Source of the DNA: Ectocarpus siliculosus
Taxonomy: Eukaryota > Sar > Phaeophyceae > Ectocarpales > Ectocarpaceae
Length of the DNA: 30,699 nt
Assembly: GCA_000310025.1 (NCBI GenBank)
Contig: FN648707.1
Location: forward strand, 2,362 to 33,060
Reading direction: 5' to 3'
Of this stretch, positions 22,224 to 25,200 are shown in pieces (within the stretch, counting starts at the first letter, position 1; each line of letters begins with the position of its first letter). A program made the translations under genes and the position numbers. Below the pieces are notes generated by a model. It searched no databases and was not told the DNA's origin. It saw only the letters and a list, made by a program, of their open reading frames with translations.

Positions 22224-25200
22224 ATGGACAACAGCGGCAGGGGGAGCACCGTGAAGATGCACGGGAGCACAAGGTTAGATGGACACCTGACCAAGAAGGG
22301 TGGTGTCCAGTGGAAGCGGCGATGGTTCATCCTCGAGGACCATGTCATCACATACTTCTCCAAGCAGGGCGACCTGCGTCCGAGGGGCCGCATGGTGCTG
22401 ATCGCTGAGTCCCGGGTGACCAACCTGCCCACGCGAGTCCACGCGTTCCAGGTGATTACCAACGCCAAAGCGCTCATGGTCTACGCGGACACGTTGGAGG
22501 AGCGAGAAAGCTGGGTCGCGGCGTTGAACCAGCAGATCAAGGGGCTGAAGGAGAGAGCGCTGCAACGTCGCAGCCGGAGGAATGTCAGGTGCACCCATCT
22601 ATCTATCTGATGAGTGTTTGACGTTTGTCCCAACGGTAGAAACAAGAGTCAGCGAGTGCGGGACCGAAAGGCGGCGTTGAGTAGAGTGGTGGACTGGAAG
22701 ACAAGAGGTGGCCTCTTGGCATGACGACCTTCGGAGATGTGTCTGGGCTTACTACCCTCCTGGTCCTTCTCCTGAAAAGCTGTCCGGTCGTGCGTGGCGT
22801 GCTCCTGATGCTACATCAGCAGATCATAGTGCCTGCCTGCACTTGGTCCCTTCGTCTCTTATCCCTGATGGCAAAACCCGCTCTCTCCAAACCAAAAGAG
22901 CAGCCGGCAAGTCAGTGGGTCCTGTTTACTCGTGGCTAGGCCCGTTCTAGTGCACGGAGCGGTGGCCTAGGTTACTGTCTTGTTGGTTGGCCTGGTGCAG
23001 CGCAGCAGGGCAAGCCAGTGTGATCGATTGCAGTCGTGTTTTCGCCGTTGATCGAAAGGTAGAACACATCTAGGCTCGGTAGATACAACAGGATTATCGT
23101 ATAAAATTGGGCCGACTTATAGATAGACACGCACGGTTTATTTGCTGTTTCCTCTTCCGTCCTAAAAGACGAAAGGCGTTCGCACTACTGTCTCCCTGCT
23201 CGTGTATAGAGTATATCTACCCTTTTGAGGAAACACCACGGAGATGGTGAGAGGCTACCATGTCCAGACTTCTCAGGCTGACGAGACGTCAGCAGCAGCC
23301 ACATGATTGGATCTGACACCTGTTGATGGCGTTCATTGCAAGTTCCGACTTGTCAGACAGGGGCATGCACACATGCACACATGCCATGTCAACATGTCTG
23401 GCTATAAGTACTGCACGTCAAATCCTTACTCATTTTCTGCCTGATCCCGCTTGTAGATGTTGTATGGATCTGCTGCTGCTGTTGGTACCTTGGTGTGTAC
23501 GTGTGTAGTCGTGGTGTAGTCTTAGATACATACCCTGAACCTTTGGCATCGGTGGGGACACACACACTTAGATCCTCGAGGCCTCTGTGTGTGTCTCTTT
23601 CTCGAGCTTGCTGCGAAGAATCTCTTCCCAAAGCAAGCAATCGTACGTAATATTTAGTCTACACCACATGGGGGGCAGTTGGCTTGTGACCACGGAAGGC
23701 ATCCGCGCCAGTTGGACCAGTAGTACGGACATTTGAAGGTACTGAGTGGAGACCGGAACGGTTTTTAATGTGAAGACAACAACAACAACAACAACAACAA
23801 CAACCGCCCTCGAAGCGACGCTGACTTCGTCGCTGACTTCGTTTGAAGTAGCACACCTAATAGTTCATTGTTCATACACCCGTCATCCTCATTCACTGCC
23901 ATGTGTCCCACGTCCCACCCACCCACCCTTCCGTTGCCCCCCTCGCCAATACATACGGCCTGCCCCGCAACGCTGGCGGCAAACAACGCCGCACTTCCTA
24001 CAACAATGTTCTTCAATAATGACGCCGAAAATGATGAAATGATGGCTGTCATCGATCGCCAGAGCGGTCAACGCCGCCGGCACTGACTTCGAGCTGGACT
24101 TGAAATACGAGATGATCAAGCCGATCGGACACGGGGCCTACGGAGTGGTCATTTCCGCGCTGGACCACGAATCCAACAACAAGGTACGTGCGTGTGCTAC
24201 ATTTTCGTTAACTTTGACGCTGCTGTTTTTCAGCAGTACATAGCTTAGAGAGGCATCCGAGGTTGGAACTAGGAGGTGCGTGTTGCTTGCGACCCCTGTC
24301 CTTCGTCGACACAGGCAGTACAAAGTACAAACAACGTTTTTGGGAACACTCGCTGTGGATATTTCTCGGCGTCGGGAAAATGAATGCGAATAGAATGAAA
24401 GAATCACCGCTATCCAAGGGTCCAATTTCCAGTTCCAAATGGGGACTTGCGCGTCATATTGTGTAATTAATTGCTGGCTGCTTGATTTCGTGCCGGACAG
24501 TTGGACTTGACTCTCTGCTGAAACTCGTCTGGTGCAGTAGACTTCCGTAAACTACAGAGTTTCCCCCCCAGGGAAGGGATCGTTTTTTTTTCTGAAACCA
24601 CACCCCCCGGGGGGAAACTGACGTACCGCGGGGTTTGGTTTATTTTTTTTGCAACGCTACGCCGGGGGGAAGCCTCCCCCCGGGGGGTTGTGCACCATAA
24701 TGATGGTCCACACACCACACACAGAGAGAGTGGCGAAACTGAGATGGATAAGGCGTTTAGTTCAACAAGCAGAGGGAGGAGGAACGTAAGAACAACGAAC
24801 GCGAAGAGAAAAAAGACAGCAAGGAGGACAGCAGCTGGGGGTGTTGTGTCGTCCCGCGAGTAATTCCAAGAAGAGGAAGGGCCCGCCTTCCAGAGAGTAC
24901 CCGCCAGCTCCGTTCACACTGCTCCGCTATGCAACAAAATCGACTCAGAACATAAGGGAATGCATCCCCCCCGGGGGGAACTCGTGGGAACTGGTACCCC
25001 GGGGGGAAATTGAAATACCCAGGGGGATCCTTTTTTTTTGGTCGAAAACGATCTACCCCGGAGCTAAATCAACGAAACCATGCTTCCAGGCCGAAAAGGT
25101 AATGGGGGGGGGGGGATCTGTACTAGGGGGGGGAAACTCCGTACGGTATTTGGAATCCGGTCGTAGCATAGACTGCTGTGAGCTATGCATACTGTCTAGA

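What the first reader, a model, noticed from the sequence alone, without database searches (positions are those of the whole stretch)
22224..24183. A PH domain spliced onto an ERK-type MAP kinase
Seen: a complete PH-domain exon starting with ATG at 22224 and ending at a GTGCAC donor in phase 2; the first kinase exon has no start codon, an in-frame TGA at 24040-24042, and a CCAG acceptor at 24061-24062 that needs exactly a phase-2 partner (AG + A = Arg). Known: canonical plant, fungal and animal MAPKs have no PH domain and are recruited by scaffolds and docking motifs. Inference: this MAPK can sense phosphoinositides directly, coupling PI signalling to the ERK module. I have a vague recollection of PH-bearing kinases in oomycete kinomes, so the architecture may be shared by stramenopiles; I cannot verify it here.
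Basis: partly seen in the sequence, partly recalled or inferred. Interest (0 to 1): 0.88.

Follow-up and report, generated by a model that had tools for sequence, protein, structure and literature searches.

The report
PH domain fused to MAP kinase
A gene that probably comes from a brown alga joins a domain of a membrane-lipid-binding type (PH) to a MAP kinase, and three sister loci in the same genome show the same joined design (one decayed, one incomplete), so this signalling enzyme may carry its own membrane address.

Summary
A complete PH-domain exon (22224-22588, phase-2 donor) splices in frame to a TEY MAP kinase whose first exon (24063-24183) has no usable start codon. The eight-exon model gives one 656-aa frame with Pfam PH (2.6e-13) and Pkinase (1.1e-65). 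The host genome tests whether the parts belong together. The PH exon matches three places at E<=0.001, itself included; all three lie just upstream of MAPK-like exons on the same strand, with the same phase-2 intron splitting an Arg codon. In a fourth paralog (contig C8) the PH C-terminal helix and the kinase N-terminal extension share one open exon, so the join there is not a splicing guess. In a 10-row tree the four kinase domains form one clade (97/96). The fusion looks old and real. Lipid binding is inferred, not shown: the PH resembles phosphoinositide-binding PHs (PLEKHA7, PKB, TAPP1, GRP1) and keeps their basic β1-β2 residues, which paralogs keep only in part. Ten searches of the held open-access library found no described PH-MAPK; the P. 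infestans kinome table lists PH among CMGC kinases, so stramenopile precedent may exist. No transcripts were available.

The parts
22224..22588 (+). exon 1: ATG, N-tail and complete PH domain (aa 18-105), C-terminal helix; ends CAG|GTGCAC, phase 2
   Evidence: PF00169 2.6e-13; AF2: 7 strands + C-terminal helix
22589..24062 (+). intron 1 (phase 2); contains in-frame TGA at 24040-24042
   Evidence: same phase and alignment position in the C16 and C489b paralogs
24063..24183 (+). exon 2: kinase N-terminal extension (FELDLKYEM) and Gly loop GHGAYG
26262..26411 (+). exon 3: VAIKK lysine and helix C region
26932..27114 (+). exon 4: hinge to catalytic loop HRDLKPSN
27658..27734 (+). exon 5: DFG and activation loop up to TE of TEY
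28093..28311 (+). exon 6: Y of TEY, P+1 loop, APE, MAPK insert region
28997..29228 (+). exon 7: C-lobe and docking-site region LHDDALEP
29660..30283 (+). exon 8: C-terminal MAPK helix, then about 185 aa low-complexity tail; stop TGA 30281-30283
21625..21678 (-). predicted 5' end of a divergent thioredoxin-like gene (a further exon fragment lies near 20476-20616), about 550 bp from the PH ATG; fits the PH exon being the first coding exon
   Evidence: (PF00085 2.1e-9 on two hand-joined exon fragments)
25640..25860 (+). copy of a dispersed repeat with a tRNA-like head (SINE-like, by eye) inside intron 2; not part of the mechanism
   Evidence: 40 places scored of 1356 candidates in the host genome

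Best explanation
The gene encodes a single protein: an N-terminal PH domain joined by a short linker (34 residues from the PH helix Trp to the kinase FELD motif) to a TEY MAP kinase with all catalytic motifs. Shown from sequence: both domains, their in-frame junction, and the same junction or order at three other loci. Inferred: the PH holds the kinase at phosphoinositide-bearing membranes, and because the linker is short and of nearly constant length it may also couple PH occupancy to kinase state, much as in PKB/Akt. TEY phosphorylation by a MAP2K would then act preferentially on the membrane-bound kinase, making it a coincidence detector of lipid and cascade signal. My split: fusion about 0.95; lipid-dependent membrane recruitment about 0.6; PH autoinhibition about 0.35.
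For: Eight exons joined by GT-AG introns with matching phases, 656 aa, no stop. Pfam PH and Pkinase above cut-off. 3 of 3 genome matches to the PH exon sit 5' of MAPK-like exons. Phase-2 intron with split Arg codon in window, C16 and C489b. C8 paralog: PH in three exons with phase-0 joins, the last of which runs from the PH C-terminal helix into kinase FELDNHYEM in one frame; the joined peptide gives PF00169 1.5e-8, above cut-off. The four kinase domains form one clade, 97/96. Linker lengths 34, 35, 34 and 38 residues. Nearest solved kinases AtMPK4 (3.7e-122) and AtMPK6. AF2 PH fold, pLDDT 71.3, pTM 0.64; PLEKHA7, PKBalpha, TAPP1 and GRP1 PH among the six best Foldseek matches in the PDB. The phmmer alignment to cytohesin-2 PH shares WKRRWFIL and PRG. 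One partial PTEN_C2 match in the host genome hints at 3-phosphoinositide turnover.
Against: No transcript, protein or lipid-binding data were available. Host searches for two PI3K domains (PF00613, PF00794) found nothing, but the tool's controls did not ring either, so they say nothing on a PIP3 source. The basic beta1-beta2 motif is not fully conserved: WKRYW in C16 and WTERW in C489b. The PH model is poor (pLDDT below 50) at residues 1-15 and 24-31, part of the presumed lipid site. One of the four loci (C16) is catalytically dead and probably broken, another (C489b) is incomplete as far as I could find. A PH-less isoform from another first exon is not excluded.
Confidence: 0.7

Rival explanations
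1. The fusion is real, but the PH is a protein-binding, dimerising or purely autoinhibitory module that does not bind phosphoinositides with useful affinity.
For: The basic residues of beta1-beta2 vary between copies: WKRRW (window), WKRYW (C16), WTERW (C489b), WKERY (C8). Only a minority of PH domains bind phosphoinositides tightly (recalled).
Against: The window copy, whose kinase is the least diverged of the four (branch 0.034), keeps K24, K25, K31, R32, R33, Y44 and the PRG Arg, and its best fold and sequence matches include inositol-phosphate-bound PH structures.
Confidence: 0.28
2. The PH exon is a separate small gene or spliced elsewhere, and the kinase has another 5' exon with its own ATG.
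For: No RNA evidence; unspliced, the PH frame stops at 22608-22610, soon after the donor. Adjacency in paralogs could arise from duplicating two neighbouring genes together.
Against: C8 carries the PH helix and kinase N-terminus in one exon. The split Arg codon, phase and position of the junction are kept at three loci. The kinase exon has an in-frame TGA upstream and no useful ATG. A divergent gene begins about 550 bp upstream of the PH ATG.
Confidence: 0.04
3. Two isoforms exist: PH-MAPK from the distal start and a conventional PH-less MAPK from an undetected exon inside intron 1.
For: Intron 1 is 1474 bp and was not searched for small alternative exons. Other MAPK-like loci of this genome showed no PH in the stretches fetched.
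Against: No positive evidence. ATGs just before exon 2 are out of frame (24005) or run into the TGA (24031).
Confidence: 0.12

Closest known systems
Plant MAP kinases MPK4/MPK6 and animal ERK1/2 (CMGC group, TEY MAPKs)
   Same: Whole kinase domain with TEY and C-terminal helix; phmmer 3.7e-122 to AtMPK4, 1.1e-118 to AtMPK6, about 1e-104 to ERK1/2 (best 60 of 2706 matches shown)
   Different: Those kinases have no PH domain (recalled); here an N-terminal PH and a low-complexity C-terminal tail of about 185 aa. One acidic position of the docking site is Leu (LHDDALEP against LHDISDEP in MPK6).
PKB/Akt (AGC kinase with N-terminal PH)
   Same: Order PH then kinase (recalled); the PKBalpha PH is the second fold match
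   Different: The kinase here is a MAPK (CMGC), not AGC, with a TEY activation loop.
Phosphoinositide-binding PH domains of PLEKHA7, TAPP1, GRP1/cytohesins
   Same: Fold and sequence, incl. WKRRWFIL
   Different: Not fused to kinases (recalled); the cytohesin-2 alignment breaks at an insertion that the window PH lacks.
P. infestans kinases with accessory domains (PMC3019232): PH in 9 kinases of AGC, CAMK and CMGC; PAS-MAPK PITG_01203
   Same: Stramenopile kinases with added sensor domains, PH among the CMGC family (Table 2 and passages seen)

Membership tests
MAP kinase (CMGC) | catalytic residues GxGxxG, VAIK Lys, HRD, DFG, APE | tested here: met
   GHGAYG 144, VAIKK 163, HRDLKPSN 261, DFG 281, APE 308; Pfam Pkinase 1.1e-65
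MAP kinase (CMGC) | TxY dual-phosphorylation motif | tested here: met
   TEY at aa 298-300, coded across exons 5 and 6
MAP kinase (CMGC) | end-to-end similarity to MAPKs, insert and C-terminal helix included | tested here: met
   alignment over query 4-349 of 354 to AtMPK4 with only a few gap positions
MAP kinase (CMGC) | acidic common-docking site | tested here: inconclusive
   LHDDALEP keeps LHD..EP, but one acidic position is Leu
MAP kinase (CMGC) | phosphorylated by a MAP2K on TEY | not testable with these tools
   needs biochemistry
PH domain (PF00169) | Pfam match above cut-off, seven strands and C-terminal helix, Trp in the helix | tested here: met
   50.8 bits vs 25.1; AF2 E18-23 to E83-87, H91-121; W97 invariant in the four copies
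phosphoinositide-binding PH | basic K-Xn-(K/R)-X-R signature at beta1-beta2 (signature recalled) | tested here: met
   K24/K25 and K31-R32-R33 in the window copy; incomplete in C16 and C489b
phosphoinositide-binding PH | measured lipid binding | not testable with these tools
   needs protein
PKB/Akt | AGC-type kinase domain | tested here: not met
   the best 60 of 2706 matched PDB sequences are all MAP kinases

The most novel reading that the evidence does not exclude
This alga, and perhaps its relatives, hold a MAPK subfamily with the membrane sensor built in: an Akt-like arrangement in which the PH both locks and addresses a TEY kinase, so that the last tier of the cascade itself needs a lipid cue. 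A catalytically dead sister (C16) that keeps the PH could act as a lipid-competing decoy, if it is expressed at all.
Probability: 0.25. Interest if true: 0.78.

Novelty: new variant of a known kind. Interest (0 to 1): 0.62.

Why it matters
MAP kinases are generally thought to get their place in the cell from scaffolds and docking partners (recalled). A MAPK with its own domain of a lipid-binding type, kept through gene duplications, would be a direct link between membrane lipid state and the output tier of the cascade. It is testable: the PH can be removed or mutated and the kinase followed. The junction also gives a defined marker for tracing the fusion through stramenopiles.

Tried and rejected
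Tried without gain. Viral-contig scans with the PH-kinase alignment and the PH alignment confirmed no relative (0 of 301 and 0 of 27 pattern matches). ARAGORN found no tRNA in the window and Rfam nothing in 22000-30699. A weak fifth PH lead on C4 (906218-906301, E 0.06): no match to either PH-kinase at E<=1 in the stretch fetched, 897000-906900. PI3K domain searches were uninformative because the controls did not ring. A PH profile found no PH in other fetched MAPK-like loci (L006, L007, L008, L010-L013, with L017 and L018), but upstream cover was only a few kb for some, so this means 'none found', not 'absent'.

Results against or beside the reading. C16 has lost the Lys, HRD, DFG and TEY motifs, and by my reading of its splice sites the exon 5/6 junction does not keep frame: pseudokinase or pseudogene. 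C489b shows no match to the later C-lobe exons as far as C489:948900, about 10 kb, and its first PH strand was not located. The C8 PH exons were first found from weak scores (12.2, 8.3 and 6.0 bits); I accept them because they lie in order, splice in phase, match the window PH in length, and together pass the Pfam cut-off. A stretch of N follows one C8 donor. The kinase tree has 10 rows, hand-joined from tblastn pieces except the window and Arabidopsis rows, so junction residues may be off; the C8 row lacks the DFG segment; two rows are very long; 1 of 7 inner branches is starred and 5 are open. Of the non-PH kinase loci of this genome only C2, C4a, C4b and C481a were put in; one search lists 93 kinase matches. 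Of the 11 PF00169 places, 3 are the ones discussed, 1 (C23) was examined, 7 were not.

Literature searches behind 'not found in print': (all 10 allowed). They cover the held open-access library alone. PMC3019232: passages seen (12 of 15 places). PMC1266030, PMC4363184, PMC5608401: passages seen. All others: search listing with abstract beginnings.

Full report
What was claimed and what is there. Both are present exactly as described. I built the whole gene from the sequence: eight exons (22224-22588, 24063-24183, 26262-26411, 26932-27114, 27658-27734, 28093-28311, 28997-29228, 29660-30283), seven GT-AG introns and consistent phases, giving 656 aa without a stop. Pfam gives PH at aa 18-105 (2.6e-13, 50.8 bits, cut-off 25.1) and Pkinase at aa 137-426 (1.1e-65). 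Gly loop, VAIK Lys, HRD, DFG, TEY and APE are present. The best solved relatives of the kinase are Arabidopsis MPK4 and MPK6, then ERK1/2.

The host assembly is held (189 Mb, 492 contigs; the window is C489:2362-33060). It is very probably a brown alga: the EsV-1-7 family, which I recall as expanded in brown algae, gives 150 matches (150 scored of 880 candidates) and none in 14 control genomes. The PH exon matches three places at E<=0.001: itself, C16 (50% identity, 1.3e-27) and another place on C489 (39%, 5.6e-9). The kinase query shows MAPK-like exons directly downstream on the same strand at all three. PF00169 itself finds 11 places in the genome. Of the 8 that are not these three I examined one (C23) and found no match to this kinase in the roughly 8.7 kb fetched downstream; the other 7 were not examined.

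The junction is conserved. In C16 the PH exon ends AG|GTGTGAG and the kinase exon starts CACAG|A. In C489b they are AG|GTGAGT and AATAG|G. In the window they are AG|GTGCAC and CCAG|A. At all three loci the intron is phase 2 and splits an Arg codon at the same place of the alignment. By eye, similarity stops at the donor. In the PH exon, window against C16, 115 aligned codons differ at 36, 32 and 49 first, second and third positions.

A fourth paralog removes the splicing guess. On C8 an exon running from an acceptor (CTTCTCCAG|TGG) to a donor (GAGATG|GTGAGT) reads WVNALDTLIKNEKEKLSKKPLRSNTKLWWAETKQGQFCFELDNHYEM: the PH C-terminal helix followed directly by the kinase N-terminal extension, in one frame. 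Upstream lie two further exons that complete the PH, with phase-0 joins; the joined PH aligns to the window PH without extra gaps inside the domain. The first intron would be about 5.3 kb. These exons were weak hits singly, but the joined peptide passes the Pfam PH cut-off (1.5e-8, 35.6 bits). The downstream kinase of C8 has HRD and TEY, with an activation loop longer by about 37 residues.

One origin. A maximum-likelihood tree of 10 kinase domains puts the four PH-bearing loci on one side of a branch with 97/96 support and in 96% of 200 bootstrap trees, apart from C2, C4a, C4b and C481a of the same genome and AtMPK4/6. The tree is small and its deeper forks are open. The window copy has by far the shortest branch of the four (0.034 against 0.39-0.78). 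So the fusion most likely happened once, before the duplications, and the window gene is the best-kept copy. The C16 copy has lost the catalytic motifs and is a pseudokinase or pseudogene; C489b lacks recognisable later exons.

What the PH is. AlphaFold2 on the PH exon with one paralog gives seven strands and a C-terminal helix (best model pLDDT 71.3, pTM 0.64; the five models 44.5-71.3), with residues 1-15 and 24-31 below 50. Foldseek against the PDB has PLEKHA7, PKBalpha, TAPP1 and GRP1 PH domains among its six best matches, some solved with inositol phosphates. By sequence the best are Myosin X, cytohesin-2 and TAPP1; the cytohesin-2 alignment shares WKRRWFIL and PRG. The window copy keeps the basic signature residues K24/K25 and K31-R32-R33; the paralogs keep it in part. 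One partial PTEN C2 match exists in the genome. The PI3K searches are uninformative.

How it most likely works. Shown: one gene model, one open frame, both domains, conserved junction, short linker of 34-38 residues. Inferred: the PH anchors the kinase at phosphoinositide membranes, and the short linker lets the PH influence the N-lobe, as in Akt. A MAP2K would phosphorylate TEY there. The strongest rival to this mechanism is a PH that binds protein rather than lipid.

Known or new. Ten full-text searches of the held open-access library found no description of a PH-MAPK. The P. infestans kinome paper lists PH in nine kinases of AGC, CAMK and CMGC, and describes a PAS-MAPK (Table 2 and passages seen). 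The CMGC entry may be a PH-MAPK; I could not read its supplement. So I file this as a new variant of a known kind: a true MAPK with an accessory domain otherwise familiar from Akt-like kinases. Absence from subscription journals and from protein databases was not tested.

Noticed in passing
L004 (G000:C16:1279500-1289400, minus strand): A PH-bearing MAPK paralog that has lost Lys, HRD, DFG and TEY motifs and whose exon 5/6 junction seems not to keep frame: pseudokinase or pseudogene with an open PH exon.
   Followed up: partly
L009 about 6081-6284 (G000:C8 about 2210.6-2210.8 kb): The C8 PH-MAPK has an activation loop with about 37 more residues (Gly/Ser/Ala/acidic) between DFG and TEY than the window kinase.
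   Followed up: no
window 25640-25860: SINE-like repeat with a tRNA-like head in intron 2; 1356 candidate copies in the genome, 40 scored, of which 39 besides itself at 87-91% identity. ARAGORN does not call a tRNA there.
   Followed up: partly
window about 20476-21678, minus strand: Divergently transcribed thioredoxin-like gene with a GCRHC active-site-like motif, sharing the upstream region with the PH-MAPK.
   Followed up: partly
L005 and L019 (G000:C489:931500-948900): The second PH-MAPK on the same contig shows no recognisable later C-lobe exons within about 10 kb: truncated, diverged or far off.
   Followed up: partly
window 29723-30280: Low-complexity Ala/Gly/Pro/Ser-rich tail of about 185 aa after the kinase, in the last exon.
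   Followed up: no
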